From a virus: a DNA stretch of 23,503 bases. This document shows, piece after piece, positions 5,547 to 19,838 of this stretch. The notes under the pieces are model-generated. The model did not search any database. It worked only from the letters and a program-made list of their open reading frames with translations, and was not told the DNA's origin. Location: positions 1 through 23,503 of the IMG/VR virus record IMGVR_UViG_3300025086_000250, one strand, 5' to 3'. The stretch's first letter is position 1. Every line of letters begins with the position of its first letter. Both the position numbers and the translations under genes were made by a program.

Positions 5547-6305
5547 ATGGCTGTTACTGTTTTATCAGGTACGTCTGGAGCCTTGTACTACAAACCTGCT
5601 GGTACTACAGGAACATTCGGGCCTTCTAATGTCACGATAGGAACTGAAACAATGATTGTTCAGACCTATTTAAACCTTAAAGTTAATGATCCAGTTAAGT
5701 TTCAAGTTATTGATTCTTCTACAGGAGGATCAGGAACAGGAACTTTACCTGCTGGATTAACTGCTGGTACAACTTATTACGTTAATACCTATACACCAGC
5801 AACAGGAGCATTAATTGTGTCGGCTTCTTCTGGTGGATCTGCTTTAAACCTAACTGATGTTGGAACAGCAGCAGCTCCAAATAAGTTTCAGGTTTATTAC
5901 AACGATTACGCTTCTGTTGGGCAAGTTCAAAACTGGTCTTTTGAGATTTCCAGAAGTGAAATTGATGTAACAACAATTGGTCAATCAGTTGGTCAATACG
6001 CACCATTTAAAACTTATATTTCAGGTTTTGCTGATGGCGAAGGTTCTGCCAGCGTGTATATCACCAATGAGGATTCAACTTTAGCTAATCGTTTAGTTGA
6101 AGATGTTATCCAACGTCAGCAAGATGGAGCAGCATTTAAGCTTTATCAAGACAAGCAAGGTACAGAAGCATTAAGTCGCAGTATTGCTATGGATGCTGTT
6201 TTACTTTCTGCAAGTTTCTCTGTTAACCCAGATGATGCACAGATGGTTGAGGTTAATTTCAGACCTAACAACGTACCAAGCTTCGACTTTAGTACTTCTT
6301 CATAA
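5547..6305 (+). CDS. major tail tube protein with inserted beta domain
   Basis: This encodes 252 residues. The tube core appears split. A first strand region (GTSGALYYKPAG, residues about 8-19) is followed by an inserted beta domain at about residues 25-115 (DPVKFQVIDSS, then TLPAGLTAGTTYYVNTYTPA). The tube core then resumes with VQNWSFEISRSEIDVTTIGQ and a GFADGEGSASVYIT strand, and ends in a VEVNFRP strand. The position between the tail terminator and the frameshifted chaperone identifies it as the tail tube subunit. The inserted domain probably projects from the tail surface (inference). Two genes at 14310 and 14771 share its core motif. An intrinsic terminator follows. The only visible start is ATG 5547, with no clear ribosome site. 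Confidence 0.85.
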   Translation: MAVTVLSGTSGALYYKPAGTTGTFGPSNVTIGTETMIVQTYLNLKVNDPVKFQVIDSSTGGSGTGTLPAGLTAGTTYYVNTYTPATGALIVSASSGGSALNLTDVGTAAAPNKFQVYYNDYASVGQVQNWSFEISRSEIDVTTIGQSVGQYAPFKTYISGFADGEGSASVYITNEDSTLANRLVEDVIQRQQDGAAFKLYQDKQGTEALSRSIAMDAVLLSASFSVNPDDAQMVEVNFRPNNVPSFDFSTSS

Positions 6306-8792: not shown

Positions 8793-9319
8793 TGACTGTT
8801 GTTGCCTTAACTGCTTTTATTACTGTTACAGACAAAGACGGAAATGTGCCTTCTTCTTTTGCTGATTTTGATGGGAATCAAGTAACAGCTACTTCTACTT
8901 CTGGCTTAAATAAGTTCCAAAATGGAAAACATGAAGGAGTTGATGACTATAAATATCTTTCTTTTATTTATCAAGGTGCAGCAATGAATAGATCGGGAGA
9001 TAATTTAGAAGCTTCAATTATCCTTGCTAATAATCCTTTAAGTATGGCTTTTGTAAAAGAATTTGTGCAGAAGAAATATTATTTGTTAGTTGAAACATTT
9101 TTAATGACAAGCGATTTTAACAAAGATGTTGCTGCTGCAAATGGAGGAAAAATATCTGGTGAATATTGGTTAGCTGCTGGCATGAGATACGATCCAGAAT
9201 CAATTGAACTGTTGTTAAGTTCTGCTATTGATGCTGTTGGTGCTAACGCTCCACAACAAATCCTGACTAGAAAAAGGTGTGCCCATCTTCCTTTGACAGG
9301 TCAATTACAAAATCTTTGA
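8792..9319 (+). CDS. minor tail protein (distal tail / gpL-position)
   Basis: This encodes 175 residues, starting at a TAATG overlap with the tape measure. It is a mostly beta protein with an acidic N-terminal half (FITVTDKDGNVPSSFADFDG), a central DNLEASIILANNPLSM strand-turn, and EFVQKKYYLLVETFLM. The C-terminus is RKRCAHLPLTGQLQNL with one Cys. Location between tape measure and the NlpC/P60-like gene corresponds to the gpM/gpL slot of lambda, where proteins cap the tail tube and start the tip. I do not see the four-Cys iron-sulphur cluster of gpL. The family name is uncertain (DUF1833-like is possible). Confidence 0.6.
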   Translation: MTVVALTAFITVTDKDGNVPSSFADFDGNQVTATSTSGLNKFQNGKHEGVDDYKYLSFIYQGAAMNRSGDNLEASIILANNPLSMAFVKEFVQKKYYLLVETFLMTSDFNKDVAAANGGKISGEYWLAAGMRYDPESIELLLSSAIDAVGANAPQQILTRKRCAHLPLTGQLQNL

Positions 9320-9723
9320 AACCTTACGAATTAATAGGTCTTGAGTATCGTTTAGGGTCTGATCCCGTTAAGCATGGAACTGGTGATTGTTTATCTTTGG
9401 TTCGTACAGTATTAGGTCATTATGGTTTTACTGTTCCAAAAGGAGAGCGTGATTGGTATCGAAGATTAAAAAGAAAAGACTATAGTATCTTTTTTGAAGA
9501 ATTAAATCGGTGGGGAGTTGAATCACCCCCTAAACTAGGAACAATTGGTTTATGTCATAGCGAAGATGATTCCTATGGTATGGCTGCTTATTACGAGGAA
9601 GGATGGCTGAGTTACCGAAAGACATTAGAAAGCCAGGTGGTGATTTGGTCTCCGCTAGAAGCCCTTTCACTCGCAGGGTGTTACTTCCAACGGAAGCCGA
9701 TCTCTGTAACCTCCTTGGATTAA
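9277..9723 (+). CDS. NlpC/P60-like tail tip protein (gpK-like)
   Basis: This encodes 148 residues from GTG 9277; a TTG at 9316, overlapping the previous stop as TTGA, is an alternative that leaves 135 residues. The motif HGTGDCLSLVRTVLGHYG, with Cys38 at the start of a helix, is the active-site region of NlpC/P60 cysteine peptidases. The following WYRRLKRKDYSIFFEELNRW helices are usual in phage members. At the place of the catalytic His (normally an HVGIYLG-like strand) the sequence is SYGMAAYYEEGWLSY, without His, so peptidase activity is doubtful. Known members cut cell-wall peptide crosslinks during entry or only help assemble the tip. The last 120 nt are also the start of the tip gene. 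Confidence 0.7.
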   Translation: MCPSSFDRSITKSLKPYELIGLEYRLGSDPVKHGTGDCLSLVRTVLGHYGFTVPKGERDWYRRLKRKDYSIFFEELNRWGVESPPKLGTIGLCHSEDDSYGMAAYYEEGWLSYRKTLESQVVIWSPLEALSLAGCYFQRKPISVTSLD

Positions 9724-12700
9724 CAGAAGAGGAATATTTTCAATTTTTAGAAGGTGTAGCAGCAAAAGTAAAAGAACGACCAGAAGCCTATGGATTAATC
9801 CCTGATATTAGATGTGATCCTGTTTCTCTTGGTTTAGCCGTTAAATCAGCGACAGGTGCGTATACGCTAACTATGTTGGGGCAGGTAGCCGTTGGTATCG
9901 CTTTAAGTGTTGCAGCGTATCTTTTAACTCCCAAGCCTAAAAGCATGAAGCAAGGCACAGCCGAAAGAACGGCTGACATGGCAGGGATGAAGCGTTTTGC
10001 TCCTCAATTTTCATTTAACAGCGTTCAAGATTTAGCAAATTTAGGCGACTTAGTTCCCCTTGTTTTTTCTTACCGTAGAGAAGTAACTATTAATGGAACA
10101 AAAAATACTTATGGTGGAATCAGAGTTAATTCACAACTTCTTTGGAGTCAGCTTGTCTCTTTGGGTCGTTATCAACAATTAAAAATACTTGCTTTATTTT
10201 CTTTAGGAGAAATAGCAAAGAGACCAGATCTTAAAGGTTATGCCATTGGTGATTTGTTATTAGAAAATTATCATGCAGAAAAACTATATAAATTAAATTA
10301 CACAGCAGATGAATATGGTTCAGCAGGTCCAAATATTCCTTTTTTGCCTGTTGGAGGAACTATTGATAATGACATTTTTAGGATTGATGATTTAAAACAT
10401 TTTTCTGGTACAAGAAACCCAACAACACAAGCAATGTTTGGTTTAAGTAATCCAGTGCCAAACGCAACTGCTTATCATTTGCCTTACGAACTAATTAGAA
10501 CAGCTAGTGATATAAGTGATGACGAACAAAGACCAGCAGGAAGAATAACTCTTAAAAAGAGAAGAAAACTTCTTGGTGCGTGGCCTATGAGAGCAGGGTT
10601 TGTTAATTCTGGAACTACTCTTCAGCAATCAGGTGGTGCTGATGCAACTGTCGGTGATGTATTGACATACCAGATAGTAGGTAGTGGAAGACTTGGTTTA
10701 TATGAAGGTATTGGATACCAGCAAGACAGTAGTGACGAAGATCTAACGATGGATCCTCATGGAGTAGAAGATGTAAATGCTGGCACAAAAACTGTAAGAG
10801 AGGCTACTGATTCATATCTTGCTGTAGGTGAACAATATATGGCTGGTTCAGCATTAGTAAGTTGTTTTCAAATTCAAGAAGATTCAAAAATTATTACTGG
10901 AGAACCTTGGGATGGTACGAAGATCAGATCATTTTCTTTTAAAGTTATAGAAACTGGAAGGTATGAATCTATTGACGACCCTAATGGTGGTTTAGGTACT
11001 CATTGCGGTAATCCTTATTGGAATAAAAATGGACCCTTTTTTGCTGTACGTCAGGGAGATCAACGCAGTTTTTATTATGAACAAAATTATCAAGATATTT
11101 TCAATGCTAATAGTAGATACACATTGCAAAAAGCAACTTTAGGAACTATTTCTAATAACAGAAAATGTCACATTACAGAAATAGGTATTAAGTCAAAAGT
11201 ATTCAAAGAAATGCAATTTGCAAATGTAAATAGCAAACCTTCAGAAGATAAAATTTACGAAGTTTATGACAATAAATCTACTCTTACACTAGGTAATGTT
11301 AATAAATATATTACTAGATATAGCTTTTTTAAATTACAAGTAAGGAAGTCTGGAGAAGACAATTGGAAGTGGTTAAAACCTACAACAAATATGGAAGCAC
11401 ATACAGGTTTGTTTTGTGTAAGAGGTAACACTCCAGAGTTTCAATATAATTATATAAGAATAGATCATCCAAGTTTTGACCAATATGAATATAGATTTTT
11501 CCCTCACCCTGGTGCTGCTGTTGTTAAAGAAGTAGAAGAATATGAAGCCGCAAATAGATATAATCCTGTTTATGCAATGATGCTAAATGCCAATGGAGTA
11601 AGAGAAGAAATTGATATTCAACAATTTGAATGTGATAATTATTTTGTTAAATTTGCAGGAGAACGTGAGCATTTATTAAACAAACAAAATTTAAGTAATA
11701 AAGAATGGAATTTAGGAGAACCAAGTAAAACAAAAATACAAAGTGCAGCTAAAAGAATTACTGGTTTTTTCCCTAATCAAGCAGGAAATTACTCTGGTGC
11801 ATCAATAAGTAATTTGCCAGAAGTAAGAACATCTAATCGAATATTCACAGATCATTTTTTATATCCACCTAATTATGGTGGTTATGTCTCAGGACACGGA
11901 ACAACAATTGCTGCTTTTCCGAACGACCCTTCACCTGGATTAACTAAGTGGAGATTGTATATCAACAGAGCAGATTTATCTGATATGCAGAATCAGGATG
12001 CTTTGCATGATGGAGAAGGAACATGGACAGGTTTAGTAGCTAATAATTATCAAGGATCAGACCCTTCTCAAGTTGAATTTCACTACACAACAAAGGCTGG
12101 AAATGGAGGTAAATTTACTCCGCACAGTTATAAAATAAACCACCCTGGATCGACTACTAAGCTATATAGCGTTAATAAGGATGAGCAAGAAGATATAAGT
12201 GCTGTAACTCCAGCATTTGATGGGGAGGTGATGGTTGACGGAGGAGAAGGATCAGCAATGTATGTGAATTTAACTATTTATACGGCTGGTTCTGGAAGCA
12301 CTATGAAATATTTTGCTATGTGGTCTTTGCATGATTCAGGTAATAACGCTTATGAAAATGATGATGATGTATTTATACATAAAGGTAACGACACTATTGA
12401 TCATCTAGGCTTACCTGAACATATACGTTTTCAAGTAAAAGTTTCTACTGTTGGAGATATTTATGGCGATGAAATATTAAGTGAATTAAATCCTTATGAT
12501 GCTGCTGCTGACTTTTGGCAATATGAAGGTGATAGATCAAGTCATTTAGACGGCCCAGAGCATCAGATAACGTATTGTAATGAGATAGTTAGAACTGCTA
12601 ATGATCCAACTACAAATTATATTCCTGAAGGAACTCCAGCAACGTATGAAAATTTAGCCTATGCAGGTTTAAGGATCGATAGTTCAAAAGAATGGACAAA

Positions 12701-13874
12701 TTTTAGTCAATTTTCTGCTTACTTTAAAGAAGGAATTAAGGTTAAAAGATTAATAAGTGATTCTGGTAATGATGCTGTAAATGGTTCTGATGGAGTAGAT
12801 AGTGAAGGGAAAGGGGCTACAAATATCTTTCCTGAAATCGCTTATGCGTTATTAACAGATAAAACAATAGGAGCTGGAGCGGTGATTAATGCTTCCTCTG
12901 TTGACGAAGATAACATGAGAATTGCAGCAAAGTTTTGTAGAGCGAATGGATTATTTTGGGACGGAATACTTTCAAACAAAGTTAATTTAAGAGAGTTTAT
13001 TTATGAACAAGCTGTTTATTCTTTATTAGATTTTACAATTATTGGTGGGAAATTTAGTTTATTTCCCACTGTTCCTTATAACAGTGATTTCACTATAAAT
13101 TATGACGGCAAACCAACAATTAAGGCAATGTTTACTGATGGAAATATTAAAGATTTGAATGTATCTTTTTTATCTTCAGAAGACAGACAAGCCTTTAAAG
13201 CAAATGTCCTTTACCGTTTAGAACAAGAAAATGGTTTCCCTGAAATAAAATCTGCTGTTGTCCGATTAGCTGGTTCAGATCATGTCGATGATCCATTAGA
13301 AACTTTTGATTTAAGTGGTTTTTGTACTAGCAGACAAACAGCACTTTTATTTGCAAAGTACACATTAGCTTTGCGTAAGCATTTAGATCACACAGTAAGT
13401 TTTAAAACAGCACCTCATTTTATTAACGGAGTAAAGCCTGGTGATTACATCAGAGTTTTTTCAACAACACAACATGTAGATCGTTTTAACAATGGAGCAA
13501 TTCTTGATGATGGTAGTGTCGTTTGTAAGGACTTAAGTGAACTAACAAGTGGAAGTCAGCCTAAAGCTTTTTATTACTGGAACCCTTCGACAATAGTAAA
13601 TAATGAAATGATGTCAGTAACAGAAGCTTCAGTAGACTTTACTAATGCAAGTGCTGTAAAGGCATTTGCTGGTTCTTTGTTTACTCTTAAAGAAACAGAA
13701 GCGGCTAATCAGTGTTATAAGGTTGAAAGTATTACGTTTGGAGAGGACGGTCTTGTTGAATTAACTGGTTCGTATGCCAAGTTAAGCACCGATGCTGGAA
13801 ATGAAGGTAAACTAGAAATGCTACAGAATTGGTCTAGTGTGAGCAATCCTGTCTTTGATTATGAAGAGGTTTAA
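9603..13874 (+). CDS. gpI/gpJ-like central tail tip protein
   Basis: This encodes 1423 residues from ATG 9603, supported by GAGGAAGG directly upstream even though the start lies 120 nt inside the previous gene. Residues 1-85 are a charged segment. Residues 87-109 are hydrophobic (TLTMLGQVAVGIALSVAAYL) and followed by LTPKPK, the pattern seen in lambda gpI-like proteins, here fused to the tip protein. About residues 135-260 give an N-terminal tip domain (SVQDLANLGDLVPLVFSYRR). About 260-960 are long beta-rich insertions. Residues about 965-1225 hold the conserved gpJ-type domain (AKFCRANGLFWDGILSN, YEQAVYSLLDFTIIGGKFSL). The C-terminus includes HFINGVKPGDYIRVFS. The protein should form the trimeric central tip that carries fibres and contacts the cell. 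It has no fibronectin repeats that I can see. Confidence 0.8.
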   Translation: MAELPKDIRKPGGDLVSARSPFTRRVLLPTEADLCNLLGLTEEEYFQFLEGVAAKVKERPEAYGLIPDIRCDPVSLGLAVKSATGAYTLTMLGQVAVGIALSVAAYLLTPKPKSMKQGTAERTADMAGMKRFAPQFSFNSVQDLANLGDLVPLVFSYRREVTINGTKNTYGGIRVNSQLLWSQLVSLGRYQQLKILALFSLGEIAKRPDLKGYAIGDLLLENYHAEKLYKLNYTADEYGSAGPNIPFLPVGGTIDNDIFRIDDLKHFSGTRNPTTQAMFGLSNPVPNATAYHLPYELIRTASDISDDEQRPAGRITLKKRRKLLGAWPMRAGFVNSGTTLQQSGGADATVGDVLTYQIVGSGRLGLYEGIGYQQDSSDEDLTMDPHGVEDVNAGTKTVREATDSYLAVGEQYMAGSALVSCFQIQEDSKIITGEPWDGTKIRSFSFKVIETGRYESIDDPNGGLGTHCGNPYWNKNGPFFAVRQGDQRSFYYEQNYQDIFNANSRYTLQKATLGTISNNRKCHITEIGIKSKVFKEMQFANVNSKPSEDKIYEVYDNKSTLTLGNVNKYITRYSFFKLQVRKSGEDNWKWLKPTTNMEAHTGLFCVRGNTPEFQYNYIRIDHPSFDQYEYRFFPHPGAAVVKEVEEYEAANRYNPVYAMMLNANGVREEIDIQQFECDNYFVKFAGEREHLLNKQNLSNKEWNLGEPSKTKIQSAAKRITGFFPNQAGNYSGASISNLPEVRTSNRIFTDHFLYPPNYGGYVSGHGTTIAAFPNDPSPGLTKWRLYINRADLSDMQNQDALHDGEGTWTGLVANNYQGSDPSQVEFHYTTKAGNGGKFTPHSYKINHPGSTTKLYSVNKDEQEDISAVTPAFDGEVMVDGGEGSAMYVNLTIYTAGSGSTMKYFAMWSLHDSGNNAYENDDDVFIHKGNDTIDHLGLPEHIRFQVKVSTVGDIYGDEILSELNPYDAAADFWQYEGDRSSHLDGPEHQITYCNEIVRTANDPTTNYIPEGTPATYENLAYAGLRIDSSKEWTNFSQFSAYFKEGIKVKRLISDSGNDAVNGSDGVDSEGKGATNIFPEIAYALLTDKTIGAGAVINASSVDEDNMRIAAKFCRANGLFWDGILSNKVNLREFIYEQAVYSLLDFTIIGGKFSLFPTVPYNSDFTINYDGKPTIKAMFTDGNIKDLNVSFLSSEDRQAFKANVLYRLEQENGFPEIKSAVVRLAGSDHVDDPLETFDLSGFCTSRQTALLFAKYTLALRKHLDHTVSFKTAPHFINGVKPGDYIRVFSTTQHVDRFNNGAILDDGSVVCKDLSELTSGSQPKAFYYWNPSTIVNNEMMSVTEASVDFTNASAVKAFAGSLFTLKETEAANQCYKVESITFGEDGLVELTGSYAKLSTDAGNEGKLEMLQNWSSVSNPVFDYEEV

Positions 13875-14281
13875 TGGCAACAGCACAACCATTTCCTACC
13901 GTTAAGCCAACGTCCAGAAGTTATAACCCTGGGACATATCCAAGTACCACGTTTGAATCGTTAGATGGTACAAAGACACATTTACGTTTTGGTAATAAAC
14001 GAGTTAATGCAACTTTGACTCTAGGGTTTTCAAATATTTCTGATGCTGAAGCAGCTTTAATTCTTGAAAATTATGAGGATGTTAATTCTACTTGGGATTA
14101 TGTAACTTTTGATCGTGGTTATGCAACTTCAGGTGTGACAGACACTAGCCTTTTGGCTTATTTAAAAGAGTCTGGATCAAGTTTGAAATGGAGATATTCT
14201 GCCCCTCCAAGTGTCACAAGTAGTTTTAAAGGAAAGAGTAATGTTAGTTGTAGTTTTGTTGCTTGCCTAGATTCACCGTAG
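13874..14281 (+). CDS. minor tail protein, unknown family
   Basis: This encodes 135 residues, starting at a TAATG overlap with the tip gene. Pro-rich N-terminus (MATAQPFPTVKPTSRSYNPG), then TFESLDGTKTHLRFGNKRVN and strands LTLGFSNISDAEAALILENY. The latter helix-turn is typical of minor tail proteins that follow the tip gene in marine siphoviruses, with an R-F-G-N strand and an AxLxxxYxx helix. The C-terminal half is beta (SLKWRYSAPPSVTSSFKGKS). It has no enzyme motifs. It may be a tip-attached adaptor for the tube-like proteins that follow; function not known to me. Confidence 0.55.
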   Translation: MATAQPFPTVKPTSRSYNPGTYPSTTFESLDGTKTHLRFGNKRVNATLTLGFSNISDAEAALILENYEDVNSTWDYVTFDRGYATSGVTDTSLLAYLKESGSSLKWRYSAPPSVTSSFKGKSNVSCSFVACLDSP

Positions 14282-14309: not shown

Positions 14310-14771
14310 GTGGGTTTTTATTCAGGCAGAGATGGAGAACTTTATGTTGCTGGTACGAAAGCAGCAAAAGTTCAGTCATGGTCTTTCTCTAGCTCAATGG
14401 CGGTATTGGAAACAACCTCATTAGGCGATACAGATAGAACACTTGAATCAGGCGTTAGAAGCTATAGCGGAAGTGCAAGACTGTTTTATTATGTTGAAAC
14501 TCCTGGCTCTGGTGCTAACTCAAACCTAAATGCCTTGTTAACTTCTGCAATTAAGACAGGTAGTGCAGCAGGTGATGGTGATAACGATCCATCAACACAA
14601 GTTGTTTTAAAGCTGCGAATGACGACAGGCTCAACGGATGTTCGAGATATTCAATTCTCTGTCTTTATTACAGGTGTTTCAATGAATAGTGCAGTAGGAG
14701 AAGTTGCTTCTGCTGATATTAGTTGGGAAGCTAATGGTGCTCCTTATGGCAACACAACTCTGGTTGATTAA
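14310..14771 (+). CDS. tail-tube-like protein, short paralogue
   Basis: This encodes 153 residues from GTG 14310. The start is backed by the matching N-terminus of the next gene (MGFYSGRDGEL here, MGVYFGQWGEV there). The core VQSWSFSSSMAVLETTSLGD, then RSYSGSARLFYY and the final SADISWEANG strand, matches the tail tube subunit encoded at 5547 in order and spacing, without the inserted domain. It is therefore probably a tube-fold protein located at the tip or on a side structure rather than in the main tube. It ends in a TAATG overlap with the next gene, so the two are likely made together. Confidence 0.65.
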   Translation: MGFYSGRDGELYVAGTKAAKVQSWSFSSSMAVLETTSLGDTDRTLESGVRSYSGSARLFYYVETPGSGANSNLNALLTSAIKTGSAAGDGDNDPSTQVVLKLRMTTGSTDVRDIQFSVFITGVSMNSAVGEVASADISWEANGAPYGNTTLVD

Positions 14772-15637
14772 TGGGTGTTTATTTTGGTCAATGGGGTGAA
14801 GTAGCCCTTAAAAGAGATACGCTTCAATCTGCTTTGCAGACGAAGTTAGATCCTTTTGACGTAAACACATCAACAAAAAGATTTAGTGTTGACCATAGTT
14901 CTGGTTCGTTAATAACTGGAGATGAAGTTGAGATAGAAACGGCTGATGGTTCGACACTTGAATTAGTTAACGGTCATAGTTATCCAGATGGGAAATGGTT
15001 TATTAATGTTGATCAAGTAGGAGGTATTCGTTTATTTGATTCTTTTGCAAAGGCAATTGAAGGTTTAACAGCTAATGCTTTAACTCTTGTTGCTCCTAGT
15101 TCTGCAAAAGATATTTTAATTCGTACCAGAAACGAAAGATTTAGGCACGTAGCAGGTGTTAGAGAATTTGAAATGACAACGAGTAGAGAGCAAGTTGATT
15201 TAACAAATCTTGGAGATGAATTTAGAAATCAATATGAAGCTGGCTTAATTAGTGGTCAAGGATCAATGACCTGTATCTGGGAGCATGATTATGACACAGG
15301 CGATAGGGCTAATGAATACGGAACAGACCCAGAATTTCCATTTTATTTAGCTCAATTGCTGGTTCGTACTCAGCAAGGATCAGATTTTGATGGATTATTT
15401 TATATTTACCGTGATCCTGATAATTCAAAGAAAAATGTCTTCTATGAAGCTAATTGCATTATTACTAATATCGCTGTAACGGTGTCTGTGACTGAGGTTA
15501 TAGAGACAAGAATAGAATTTGTAACAAATGGAGTAATTAGTTTAAAGACAGGAGATACACCAGGATTCTTGTTACAGGAGAACTCAGATAAGATATTACA
15601 AGAAAATCAGAGTCGCATATTGCTCGAACAGGTTTAA
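14771..15637 (+). CDS. tail-tube-like protein with inserted domain
   Basis: This encodes 288 residues. It opens MGVYFGQWGEVALKRDTLQ. An inserted beta domain follows at about residues 24-112 (DEVEIETADGSTLELVNGHS, then PDGKWFINVDQVGGIRLFDS). The tube core is recovered with VREFEMTTSREQVDLTNLGD, RNQYEAGLISGQGSMTCIW and a VSVTEVIETRIEFVTNGVI strand. The organisation is the same as in the tail tube gene at 5547: short strand, inserted domain, core. The last about 22 residues are a Leu/Gln/Glu/Asn repeat (LLQENSDKI, LQENQSRI, LLEQV), a tail I recall from marine phage virion proteins, possibly an assembly or fibre-binding segment. The role, tip ring or fibre-base platform, is inference. Confidence 0.65.
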   Translation: MGVYFGQWGEVALKRDTLQSALQTKLDPFDVNTSTKRFSVDHSSGSLITGDEVEIETADGSTLELVNGHSYPDGKWFINVDQVGGIRLFDSFAKAIEGLTANALTLVAPSSAKDILIRTRNERFRHVAGVREFEMTTSREQVDLTNLGDEFRNQYEAGLISGQGSMTCIWEHDYDTGDRANEYGTDPEFPFYLAQLLVRTQQGSDFDGLFYIYRDPDNSKKNVFYEANCIITNIAVTVSVTEVIETRIEFVTNGVISLKTGDTPGFLLQENSDKILQENQSRILLEQV

Positions 15638-15668: not shown

Positions 15669-18600
15669 ATGGCAGATCTCCAGATTACGGGTTTACCCGC
15701 TTTAGCAGAAGCAGGTATTCAAGCAACAGACGTAGCGGCGGTTGCTGATATTAGTGCAACTGAGACTAAAAAAGTAACGATTAAAGATTTAATTGCTGCT
15801 GGTGTTGCCTTAATTGATGACGGAGATATACCTGCTGCAAAAGTTGGGACATTAGGCACGAACCAAGTAGCAAGTGCAGCTATACAAGCTAATGCTGTTA
15901 CTGCTGCCAAGATTGCAAGTGGAACGATAACTGCAACAGAAATAGCAGATGCAACGATAACTGGAGCGAAGTTAGTTAACGATACTGTTACTGCAACACA
16001 GATAGCTGCTAATGCGATAACTGCTTCTGAATTAGCTGATAATGCTGTAGATACTGCTGCTATTGCTGCAAACGCCGTAACAACTGCGAAGATTACAGAT
16101 GCAAATGTTACTTATGCAAAGTTAAGTCTTAGTGATGGAGATATTCCTGGGGCAAAAATTGCAACAGGTGGAATCACAGCAACACAATTAGCAGCAAATT
16201 CTGTAACGGCCTCTGAACTTGCTGACGATGCAGTTGACACCGCAGCCATTGTTGACGGTGCTATTACAGCAGTAAAGATTGCAACAAATACAATTACTGC
16301 TAATCAAATAGCGGCAAATGCTGTTGGTGCTAGTGAGTTAGCAGATAACGCCGTTGACACGGCTGCTATTGCTGATGGTGCTGTTACCTCTGCAAAACTT
16401 TCTGGAGCGTTATCTTCTAGTGCGATTGCTGATAATGCAGTTACGACAGCGAAGATTGCTGATGACGCTGTAACAAGTGCGAAGCTTGCAGCAAACGCTG
16501 TTGATGCAGCAGCTTTAGCTGATAACGCTGTTGATTCTGGAGCGATAGCTAGTAGTGCCGTTATAGAAGCAAAGATCGCTTCAAGTGCTGTAACTGTCAC
16601 CAAAATTGCTGATGGCACGATTACACCAGCAAAGTTAAATACTTCTAATCTTGATCGTTCGTTAAATGTAGCTAGTGGAAATCTCGGAATTAATAACACA
16701 ATTACTGCCGCAACTCGTTCAGGAATTACATATAACGCTCAAGGATTAATTACAGGAACAGTTGCTCTTGCGGCTGGAGATTTACCTGTTGCTACTACAT
16801 CTGCTGTTGGTGGTGTTTCTGTTAGTACTGGTCTGACTGTTAATGGGGCAGGTGCATTATCTCTTACTAATAGCGTTACTGGAGCAACAGTTAGTGGAAT
16901 AACTTTTAACAATCAAGGAATGATTACTGCTGCAACTGCTTTGGTTGCAAGTGACTTACCAGTATCAACAACAAGTGCCAAAGGTGCAGTTCAAATTACA
17001 TCTGGAGGAGGATTAACTGTTGACGGTTCTGGTAATTTATCAACCTCAACAAGTGGAATTAGTGCTGGAACGTATCAATCAATAACTGTAAATAATAAAG
17101 GTGTAGCAACAGCAGGTGCAGCATTAACAGCAGGTTTAATTCCTGATCTTGCGGCAAGCAAAATAACAAGTGGAAGTTTTGATGCTGCGAGGATAGCTAA
17201 TGATTCTATTGATGGATCAAAGTTAAGTAATGCTTCTACAGCAGTCTTTCAGTCAATTGCTCAAAGTGGCTATCCAACAGCACAATTTAATGGTCAAATT
17301 CTTTTTGATACTGTTTCTGAGGATGCGTTCATCTGGGATGGTAACGCTTGGCAAGCCATCACCACGCTGACAAAAGGAAGTCTTGTTTTTGGTGGAACAT
17401 ATAACGCAAGCACTAGCAAAATGGCTAGTACTACTACCGCAGGAATAGCGGCTGGTCTAGCAGTTGGAAGTAATTTACCTAGTCCAAGTGCTACTACTGA
17501 TGGTGTTTATGTTGTTGTAGATGTTGCTGGAACGCCTTCCGCACCAGCTCCAGTTGTATCTCTTTCTCCTCCTGACTATATCCTTGGTGTGACAAATAGT
17601 GCTGGGTCGTCATGGAATGAGATCGACCTTTCACAAACAGTTGCAGGTCAAGTTGCAAGTAACATTACTTTCACACCTTACGGTCAGTTAAGTTCAACTA
17701 ACGTACAAGATGCAATTCAAGAATTAGAGACAGAAAAACTAGCACTTGCTGGTGGTACTATCACAGGTCAGGTGTTAATTGGTAATACTGGAAGCCTTGT
17801 ATTTGAAGGATCTACGATTGATGCTTATGAAACAACAATAACAGTTGCAGATCCAACATCATCAGATAAAACTATTACTTTTCCAGACACAACAGGAACA
17901 GTAATTACAACTGGAGATACTGGAACTGTTACTGGAACGATGCTTGCTAATGGCACGATCCAGAACGTAGATATACACGCTGATGCTGCAATTGCATTTA
18001 CCAAATTAGCTGATTTAACTTCTGCTCAAATCCTTGTAGGTAACGGGTCGAATGAGGTTACAGCAGTAGCAGTTACAGGTGATATTGGAATCAATAATGC
18101 AGGTTTAACTTCTATTACTGCTGGTGCAATTGTTAATGCTGATATATCTGGATCGGCTGCAATTACAGGTTCAAAAGTAACTACTGGAACGACAAGTGCC
18201 GTTGGTGTTCTTCAGTTAACTGATAGTGCAACATCAACTTCTGCTACGACTGCTGCTACTCCTGCTGCTGTAAAGATTGCGAAGGATGCTGCTGACGCTG
18301 CTGCTACAACAGCCAATGCTGCTTTGCCTAAAGCTGGTGGCACAATGACAGATAATTTGATTATTGATAATGGGAAAGAATTAAGGCTAAGTGAATCAGA
18401 TGGAGATGGTACTAATTACACAGGTTTAAAAGCACAGGCTCAATCAGGAGATATAACTCTTACTCTTCCTGCTGTTGCTCCTACTGCTGGTCAAGTTCTT
18501 AAGGCTAATGCGTCAACACCTACGACTTTGGAGTGGGGAACTGATAGTGCAACTGACTCAACAAAAATGCCTCTTGCTGGTGGCACGTTCACAGGAGATG

Positions 18601-19838
18601 TCACTTTTACTGGGGATGCTAGTAATGGGTTATGGGATAAGTCAGCGAGTGCCTTTGTTGCGAACTTAACTGGAAATGTCACAGGTAATGTTTCTGGAAG
18701 TGCTGCAACGGTTACGGGTGCTGCTCAATCTGCAATTACTTCTCTTGGAACGCTTACTGGGTTAACTGTTGATGGTGATGTCACTCTGACAGGTTCAAGT
18801 GCAAATGTTACTTGGGATAAGTCAACAGATGATTTGATCTTTAATGACAATGCAAAAGCAATATTCGGTACAAGTTCAGATGGACTAGAGATATTTCACG
18901 ATGCAAGTAATTCTCGGATTAAAGACACAGGAACGGGAGCTTTAAAATTAAGTGGAAATGTTGTAGCGATAGAAAATGCAGGAACTACAGCAACAATGGC
19001 AACTTTTAATGACGGAGCCTCAGTAGAGTTATATCACGCCACCAGTAAGAAGTTTGAGACTACAGCTTATGGTGCTGCTTTAACTGATAATGATGCTTCC
19101 ACAGAATTAAGGTTCACTACAACAACAGGTCAAGTAGGAAGTCTATGGGGTAATAGCAATACAACTTTTGGATTATTAGATGGTCAAGGTCATTTTTCTG
19201 TTATTTGCACAAAAGACGGAGGCGTAGAATTATATCACAATAACGTCAAAGTTTTCGACACAGATCCCAATGGCATTATGGTTGTTGGGCCAGAAGGTGG
19301 TAATGGACTTATAAAACTATATGCTGATGAAGGAGATGATAATGCTGATAAACGTCAACTTCTTGTAGATACTAACGGTGATTTCTATATTCAAAACTAT
19401 GCGGATGGTGCTTGGGAAACCGACATCATGGTATATCAATCTGAAGTACGTTTGTACTATGACAATAGTATTAAATTACAAACCGCCTCTACTGGCATTA
19501 CGGTCACTGGAACGGTATCAGACAGCAAAGGCGATTTAAGAAAGATAATTAAATCTACAAAATCTTCTGCTTATACATTAGTTGCTTCTGATGCTGGTAA
19601 AGCCATTTATACTGATAGTGGAGTTACTCTGAATAACAATATATTTGGTAATGGAGATGCGGTTACAATTATAAATCAAAGTGGTGCAGATATAACAATT
19701 ACTTCAGGTAGTGGAGTAACTATATTTAACACCGCAGATGCCACCACAGGGAATAGAACTTTAGCTGGTAGGGGTATGGCTACTATGTGGTTTGCTGATC
19801 CGTCTACTGCCTACATCTCAGGTGCAGGGTTGTCATAA
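15669..19838 (+). CDS. large tail fibre protein
   Basis: This encodes 1389 residues with very low Cys and high Ala, Thr, Gly, Ser and Asn. Domain order: a short N-terminal tip-binding part (1-70); about 25 decapeptide repeats (71-323); three copies of a 50-65-residue module containing SGITYNAQG- or SGITFNNQG-type strands and DLPVATTSAVGGVSV-type strands (about 336-500); a central part with QFNGQILFDTVSEDAFIWDG (about 539-690); further beta modules with LAGGTITGQVLI (693) and PLAGGTFTGDVTFTGD (968); and three LYH..K.F.T strands (about 1120, 1187, 1261). The C-terminal domain (1290-1389) ends AYISGAGLS. Such proteins are trimeric fibrous receptor-binding structures. No intramolecular chaperone (S74-type) domain is seen at the end. 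No clear ribosome site precedes ATG 15669. Confidence 0.85.
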   Translation: MADLQITGLPALAEAGIQATDVAAVADISATETKKVTIKDLIAAGVALIDDGDIPAAKVGTLGTNQVASAAIQANAVTAAKIASGTITATEIADATITGAKLVNDTVTATQIAANAITASELADNAVDTAAIAANAVTTAKITDANVTYAKLSLSDGDIPGAKIATGGITATQLAANSVTASELADDAVDTAAIVDGAITAVKIATNTITANQIAANAVGASELADNAVDTAAIADGAVTSAKLSGALSSSAIADNAVTTAKIADDAVTSAKLAANAVDAAALADNAVDSGAIASSAVIEAKIASSAVTVTKIADGTITPAKLNTSNLDRSLNVASGNLGINNTITAATRSGITYNAQGLITGTVALAAGDLPVATTSAVGGVSVSTGLTVNGAGALSLTNSVTGATVSGITFNNQGMITAATALVASDLPVSTTSAKGAVQITSGGGLTVDGSGNLSTSTSGISAGTYQSITVNNKGVATAGAALTAGLIPDLAASKITSGSFDAARIANDSIDGSKLSNASTAVFQSIAQSGYPTAQFNGQILFDTVSEDAFIWDGNAWQAITTLTKGSLVFGGTYNASTSKMASTTTAGIAAGLAVGSNLPSPSATTDGVYVVVDVAGTPSAPAPVVSLSPPDYILGVTNSAGSSWNEIDLSQTVAGQVASNITFTPYGQLSSTNVQDAIQELETEKLALAGGTITGQVLIGNTGSLVFEGSTIDAYETTITVADPTSSDKTITFPDTTGTVITTGDTGTVTGTMLANGTIQNVDIHADAAIAFTKLADLTSAQILVGNGSNEVTAVAVTGDIGINNAGLTSITAGAIVNADISGSAAITGSKVTTGTTSAVGVLQLTDSATSTSATTAATPAAVKIAKDAADAAATTANAALPKAGGTMTDNLIIDNGKELRLSESDGDGTNYTGLKAQAQSGDITLTLPAVAPTAGQVLKANASTPTTLEWGTDSATDSTKMPLAGGTFTGDVTFTGDASNGLWDKSASAFVANLTGNVTGNVSGSAATVTGAAQSAITSLGTLTGLTVDGDVTLTGSSANVTWDKSTDDLIFNDNAKAIFGTSSDGLEIFHDASNSRIKDTGTGALKLSGNVVAIENAGTTATMATFNDGASVELYHATSKKFETTAYGAALTDNDASTELRFTTTTGQVGSLWGNSNTTFGLLDGQGHFSVICTKDGGVELYHNNVKVFDTDPNGIMVVGPEGGNGLIKLYADEGDDNADKRQLLVDTNGDFYIQNYADGAWETDIMVYQSEVRLYYDNSIKLQTASTGITVTGTVSDSKGDLRKIIKSTKSSAYTLVASDAGKAIYTDSGVTLNNNIFGNGDAVTIINQSGADITITSGSGVTIFNTADATTGNRTLAGRGMATMWFADPSTAYISGAGLS
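15879..16637 (+). repeat. 30-bp in-frame repeats coding decapeptides in the fibre
   Basis: About 25 tandem in-frame units encode ten-residue repeats with the pattern (K/E/A)-(I/L)-A-x-(N/D)-(A/T)-(V/I)-(T/D)-x-A, for example KIADDAVTSA, KLAANAVDAA and ALADNAVDSG. One unit near residues 152-162 (SLSDGDIPGA) breaks the register. Nucleotide identity between units is moderate, so the array is old or selected for sequence rather than a recent expansion. Such strict decapeptide periodicity suggests a regular fibrous fold in the fibre shaft. Confidence 0.85.

What the first reader, a model, noticed from the sequence alone, without database searches (positions are those of the whole stretch)
14310..15637. 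Two extra tail-tube-fold proteins behind the tip gene, one with the same domain insertion as the tube
The proteins at 5547, 14310 and 14771 share the core pattern V-x-x-(W/F)-x-(F/M)-x-x-(S/T)-x-x-x-x-(D/E)-(V/T)-T-x-(I/L)-G, followed by a Gly-x-(G/A)-Ser strand. The 5547 and 14771 proteins both carry an about 90-residue beta insertion at the same place. The 14310 and 14771 proteins share their N-termini. A phage with three tube-like subunits, two encoded among fibre genes, suggests a tube-like ring, cap or side stalk at the distal end that carries the fibre.
Basis: partly seen in the sequence, partly recalled or inferred. Interest (0 to 1): 0.6.

Follow-up and report, generated by a model that had tools for sequence, protein, structure and literature searches.

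The report
Tail-tube paralogue pair before fibre gene
A group of uncultured aquatic phages, close to known cyanobacterial phages, carries two extra relatives of its own tail-tube protein, always encoded as a pair between the tail-tip gene and the fibre gene, which probably build extra rings at the tail's end that help hold the fibre.

Summary
Call the proteins at 5547, 14310 and 14771 T, B and C. They are true paralogues. Family profiles match at E 4e-9 (T-B), 2e-7 (B-C) and about 1e-5 (T-C), against 0.016 or worse for unrelated window proteins. T is the main tube by gene position. B matches major-tail-protein families and finds the tubes of isolated cyanophages. C's model resembles tail tubes, modestly. 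T and C carry a roughly 100-residue insertion in the same beta1-beta2 loop, but the inserts are not demonstrably homologous.

B and C are not accidental copies. In the contigs every testable C follows B (196 of 196), every testable B follows tip gene J or J plus minor tail gene A (170 of 170), and every testable C precedes a fibre gene with a conserved N-terminus (174 of 174). Cyanophage KBS-S-2A keeps T (72%) but has another tip and no B or C. So the pair belongs to the tip and fibre module, not the shaft.

Most likely B and C form tube-fold rings at the distal end, B undecorated like T5 p140 and C decorated, which help mount the fibre. Rings and fibre contact are inferred, not shown. New variant of a known kind.

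The parts
5547..6305 (+). T: major tail tube protein, tube core plus about 100-residue beta insertion between strands 1 and 2
   Evidence: Lies between tail terminator (PF13554, 1.6e-13) and the chaperone/tape-measure genes; phrog_158 major tail protein 2.8e-7; predicted model matches tail tubes
9603..13874 (+). J: tail tip / central hub gene that precedes the A-B-C cassette
   Evidence: phrog_27845 tail protein 1.1e-31; conserved upstream neighbour of the B-C pair
13874..14281 (+). A: minor tail protein, probably the distal-ring (lambda gpM-position) protein, relocated behind J in this clade
   Evidence: phrog_15525 minor tail protein 2.6e-18; sits between TMP and L in relatives such as L154, L165, L287, L359
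14310..14771 (+). B: undecorated tail-tube paralogue
   Evidence: phrog_10528 major tail protein 9.2e-6; T-B 4e-9, B-C 2e-7; family profile finds main tubes of S-H1, MED4-117, MED4-184 and KBS-S-2A
14771..15637 (+). C: decorated tail-tube paralogue, insertion about residues 16-123 in the beta1-beta2 loop, charged C-terminal tail LLQENSDKILQENQSRILLEQV
   Evidence: profile-profile with B and T; AlphaFold2 model pLDDT 72.6 whose best PDB matches are mostly tail tubes, Hcp and baseplate tube domains, Z up to 6.8
15669..19838 (+). F: tail fibre with conserved roughly 45-residue N-terminal domain, always next to C
   Evidence: phrog_892 tail fiber 2e-39; 174 of 174 C genes with sequence downstream are followed by this N-terminus; 68% mean identity in first 45 aa against 20% in last 150

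Best explanation
B and C are ancient duplicates of a siphophage tail-tube subunit that have become tip parts. Each probably assembles, as tube-fold proteins do, into a ring on the distal end of the tail near the A/J tip complex. B gives a bare ring; C gives a ring whose beta1-beta2 loop, which in lambda gpV faces outward, carries an extra beta domain. Together they form the collar on which the N-terminal 45-50 residues of the following fibre F are mounted. Shown here: common ancestry of T, B and C, same-place insertion in T and C, invariant gene order J-(A)-B-C-F, and independence from the tube gene. Inferred: virion location, ring form, order along the tail and contact with the fibre.
For: Homology T-B-C with clean controls. 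B profile run on whole genomes finds the known main tubes of isolated cyanophages, E 1e-18 to 4e-7. The C model lists tail tubes, Hcp and baseplate tube domains as its leading PDB matches. J or J+A precedes B in 170 of 170, B precedes C in 196 of 196, F follows C in 174 of 174 testable distinct cases, with B/C stop-start overlaps of 1 or 4 bases in 125. KBS-S-2A (T 72%, MCP 80%) and contigs G010, G011 and G012 keep T but have other tips and lack B and C. C divergence tracks B and the F N-terminus (partial rank correlation 0.43 [0.33-0.55] and 0.36 [0.21-0.48], 73 genomes) and not T (about 0.1 in the 25 genomes with T). Precedent from T5: p140 is a TTP duplicate without the Ig decoration, ringed by the collar that anchors fibres, probably through about 50 N-terminal residues (PMC10038345). 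In lambda the beta1-beta2 O-loop lies on the ring's outer surface (PMC10721106).
Against: No virion proteomics or structure exists. B was not modelled. The C model is of moderate confidence (pTM 0.60) and no PDB match passes Foldseek E 0.001. The co-divergence signal is confounded by gene adjacency: A's partial correlations shift with its gene position. KBS-S-2A fibres with a similar N-terminus sit after J with no B or C. No p132-like collar gene was identified.
Confidence: 0.55

Rival explanations
1. B and C are extra axial rings between tube and tip (spacer or symmetry-matching rings, as T5 p140 or lambda gpM) with no direct role in holding the fibre, which attaches to J.
For: T5 p140 and lambda gpM are precedents for such rings. 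KBS-S-2A mounts F-type fibres without B or C. B and C move with the J/L/A tip type.
Against: C is directly followed by F in all 174 testable cases and C-F divergence correlates after controlling for J and A. A phage that already has a distal-ring candidate A would need two more rings.
Confidence: 0.25
2. B and C are minor or alternative tube subunits mixed into the tail shaft.
For: Same fold and ancestry as T; S-H1 has two tandem tube-like genes at the tube position.
Against: B and C sit with the tip and fibre genes, never beside T, and are lost when the tip is exchanged while T stays. Their divergence does not follow T.
Confidence: 0.07
3. B and C are assembly factors for the fibre or tip and are not in the mature virion.
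For: Placement next to the fibre gene, where phages often encode fibre chaperones (general knowledge).
Against: They are tube-fold proteins, which are structural in the characterised phages cited here; no chaperone family matched B or C in Pfam, PHROGs or NCBIfam.
Confidence: 0.07
4. B and C form a separate stalk or cap off the tail axis, made of tube-like rings, that carries the fibre.
For: Allowed by the tube fold and the gene position.
Against: No precedent found in the papers searched.
Confidence: 0.06

Closest known systems
T5 p140 (tube-like baseplate ring) with p132 collar
   Same: Duplicate of the phage's own tube protein; the undecorated copy (B, p140) lacks the domain carried by the main tube; gene lies with tip genes; fibre probably mounted through about 50 N-terminal residues (PMC10038345)
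   Different: B is still recognisable by sequence profile; it is paired with a second, decorated tube paralogue C instead of an Ig-like p132 collar; the pair lies behind the tip gene next to the fibre gene
Lambda gpM / siphophage distal tail protein ring
   Different: The gpM position in relatives is taken by A, not by B or C; B and C show no sequence match to gpM
Major tail proteins of S-H1, MED4-117, MED4-184 (phrog_10528, phrog_1407)
   Same: B core is homologous and without insertion, E 1e-18 to 1e-15; the tree groups B with them, support 86/73
   Different: Those are the main tubes, upstream of the tape measure; B is an extra copy behind the tip gene
Acinetobacter phage Mystique tail tube (9n71)
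   Same: Its residues 103-180 match C residues 16-123, the insertion (Z 5.4, 3.1 A, 77 residues, 20% identity)
   Different: It is a main tube protein; the match is modest

Membership tests
Siphophage tail-tube (gpV/Hcp-fold) protein family | Sequence-profile homology to bona fide major tail proteins | tested here: met
   B: phrog_10528 9.2e-6 and main tubes of isolates; C: via B and T profiles, 2e-7 and 9e-6, direct phrog_10528 only 2.5e-4 over 37 residues
Siphophage tail-tube (gpV/Hcp-fold) protein family | Tube beta-sandwich fold of the monomer | tested here: inconclusive
   C model: most leading matches are tubes, Hcp or baseplate tube domains, but Z at most 6.8 and Foldseek E at least 0.017. 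B was not modelled.
Siphophage tail-tube (gpV/Hcp-fold) protein family | Gene between terminator and chaperone/tape measure (main tube) | tested here: not met
   T meets it; B and C lie behind J. So B and C are paralogues, not the main tube.
Siphophage tail-tube (gpV/Hcp-fold) protein family | Assembly into hexameric rings | not testable with these tools
   No multimer prediction or experiment available
T5 p140-type baseplate tube ring | Paralogue of the phage's own tube lacking its decoration domain | tested here: met
   B aligns to T residues 121-245 and lacks the insertion; C keeps an insertion
T5 p140-type baseplate tube ring | Partner Ig-like p132 collar protein | tested here: inconclusive
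   Only C lies between B and the fibre gene; a collar protein elsewhere was not searched for
T5 p140-type baseplate tube ring | Ring located between last tube ring and distal tail protein | not testable with these tools
   Needs cryo-EM
Lambda gpM / distal tail protein | Gene between tape measure and L | tested here: not met
   B and C are always behind J; A occupies this place in relatives
Lambda gpM / distal tail protein | Sequence homology to gpM | tested here: inconclusive
   hhalign of A, B and C families with single-sequence lambda gpM gives E 0.12-0.46; a single sequence is a weak target

The most novel reading that the evidence does not exclude
A tube paralogue pair is itself the fibre-bearing collar: C's outward-facing loop domain is the fibre socket and B the base ring, so these phages mount fibres on modified tube rings rather than on a Dit, hub or Ig-type collar, a design not described in the papers searched.
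Probability: 0.35. Interest if true: 0.55.

Novelty: new variant of a known kind. Interest (0 to 1): 0.45.

Why it matters
It shows, from sequence alone, a tail tube diversified into tip parts that remain recognisable as paralogues (in T5, p140 shares only 9% identity with its tube, PMC10038345). It gives a testable route for how distal-tail rings and fibre collars evolve. Annotation by best hit would call B a second major tail protein and leave C nameless.

Tried and rejected
Insert-only comparison of T and C gave no significant homology with small or large families, so the claim of the same domain was not adopted. PDB sequence searches with B, C and T profiles gave nothing credible. C has no match in GTDB genomes with the one conserved pattern used, a weak test. 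A versus lambda gpM was not significant; A as the distal ring rests on gene position only. An off-axis stalk was considered; no evidence found. Co-divergence was tried as interaction evidence; B-C and C-F persist in most subsets but adjacency confounds it. Search of the fibre N-terminus in isolates by tblastn found nothing, although a profile scored the KBS-S-2A fibres weakly (33 bits). [quoted passage not shown]

Full report
Setting. The window is a 23.5 kb linear virus record with a siphophage structural order: terminator U 5112, tube T 5547, chaperone, tape measure 6945, L 8792, K 9277, J 9603, A 13874, B 14310, C 14771, fibre F 15669 and a second large fibre-like gene 19877 (the letters L and K follow lambda gene order, with sequence support only for K). 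Its major capsid protein is 80% identical to that of cyanophage KBS-S-2A and its tube protein 72%, so a picocyanobacterial host is likely (inference).

Observation. T, B and C are homologous. Profile-profile comparison of strict families gave T-B 4e-9, B-C 2e-7, T-C 1.2e-4 and 9e-6 in the two directions, against 0.016 or worse for nine other window families. Larger families gave 1e-12, 1.4e-8 and 7.5e-8. The B family profile, run on whole records, finds the annotated main tubes of MED4-117, MED4-184 and DSL-LC06, the tube-position genes of S-H1, and in KBS-S-2A only its T gene, E 3.7e-7.

Insertion. T and C each have a stretch of about 100 residues between the N-terminal strand (T: SGTSGALYYKP; C: YFGQWGEVALKR) and the V-x-x-W/F strand; B has a short turn there. 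Predicted strands follow a similar order: T 35-38, 49-56, 77-83, 88-92, 112-118; C 22-26, 52-57, 73-80, 86-89, 113-119. In lambda gpV the beta1-beta2 connection is the O-loop on the ring's outside (PMC10721106), so both inserts should point outward (inference). Direct homology of the inserts is not shown: E 0.02-0.11, close to the control range. The T insert fold also resembles a domain of ubiquitin-activating enzymes (Z 6.8, 2.3 A, 74 residues), the C insert a part of the Mystique tail tube (Z 5.4). T-insert-like sequence recurs in an otherwise different 194-aa protein of a relative (L359), so it is probably a mobile domain.

Structure. C model: pLDDT 72.6, pTM 0.60. Its best PDB matches are the R4C tail tube (Z 6.8, 101 residues), an 80alpha baseplate chain (6.4), Hcp proteins, and YSD1, SPP1 and P74-26 tubes; Foldseek E-values are weak, best 0.017. 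T model: pLDDT 69.5, Foldseek best 1.5e-4 to the T1 tail tube, VIA Z up to 9.1 to an Hcp.

Gene neighbourhood. Across all loci there are 214 distinct C proteins: B directly upstream in 196 of 196 testable, usually with a 1- or 4-base overlap or a gap of 2-3 bases; J or J plus A before B in 170 of 170; a fibre with the same N-terminus after C in 174 of 174 (N-termini listed). These loci were found by similarity to B, C or T, so the counts describe this lineage and its relatives, not all phages. A sits between tape measure and L in some relatives, the place of lambda gpM, and behind J in the window's clade, while B-C never leave the J-F interval. Relatives with T but another tip (KBS-S-2A; contigs G010 and G011; G012 with J-A-A) have no B or C; G011 and G012 may be fragments. 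So B-C is inherited with the tip and fibre, not with the shaft.

History. In a tree of the cores T and C are each one clade (100/98, 100/99) and B groups with insertion-less main tubes of other cyanophages rather than with T (86/73, a soft branch). One B-labelled row was the DSL-LC06 tube itself, entered twice, which explains the two-change result for B. The duplications are therefore old, and the T insertion may be later than the split from B. T is conserved (median 72% identity) while B (43%), C (55%) and J (35%) change faster.

Mechanism. The F protein keeps its first 45 residues (68% mean identity) while its last 150 vary (20%), as expected of a docking end plus an adaptable distal end. 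C divergence follows B and the F N-terminus and hardly T (partial rank correlations 0.43, 0.36 and about 0.1); gene adjacency could produce part of this, since A's correlations change with its position. The best parallel is T5: p140, a duplicate of the tube protein without its Ig decoration, forms a ring between tube and distal tail protein, surrounded by the p132 collar that holds the fibres, probably by about 50 N-terminal residues (PMC10038345). I propose that B plays the bare ring and C the decorated ring or collar. Against strict dependence: KBS-S-2A has fibres with a similar N-terminal motif after J without B or C.

Verdict. Tube paralogy: about 0.95. Tip association: about 0.85. Fibre mounting: about 0.5. 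New variant of a known kind.

Noticed in passing
13874-14281: Minor tail gene A occupies the lambda gpM position (between tape measure and L) in many relatives but lies behind J in the window's clade: a gene relocation inside the tail operon.
   Followed up: partly
15669-15803: Fibre N-terminus MADLQITxLPALxEAxIQATD...SATETKKVTxKDL is conserved across 161 fibres while the remainder diverges; a weaker version starts two KBS-S-2A fibres.
   Followed up: partly
L359:18693-19277: A 194-aa protein behind the fibre carries a domain like the T insertion (LP.GLT..T.YFV...GGSAI), suggesting a mobile decoration domain.
   Followed up: partly
L188:19582-20423 (S-H1 record 32532-33373): Synechococcus phage S-H1 has two tandem tube-like genes at the tube position, both matched by the B profile.
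   Followed up: no
9603-9723: The ORF calls of K (9277-9723) and J (9603-13874) overlap by 121 bases; the true J start may be later, or the overlap may be real as with lambda K and I.
   Followed up: no
L295:1-3080: A C-bearing contig with over 1.5 kb upstream of the tape measure shows no T-family gene; it may use a different tube or be truncated.
   Followed up: no
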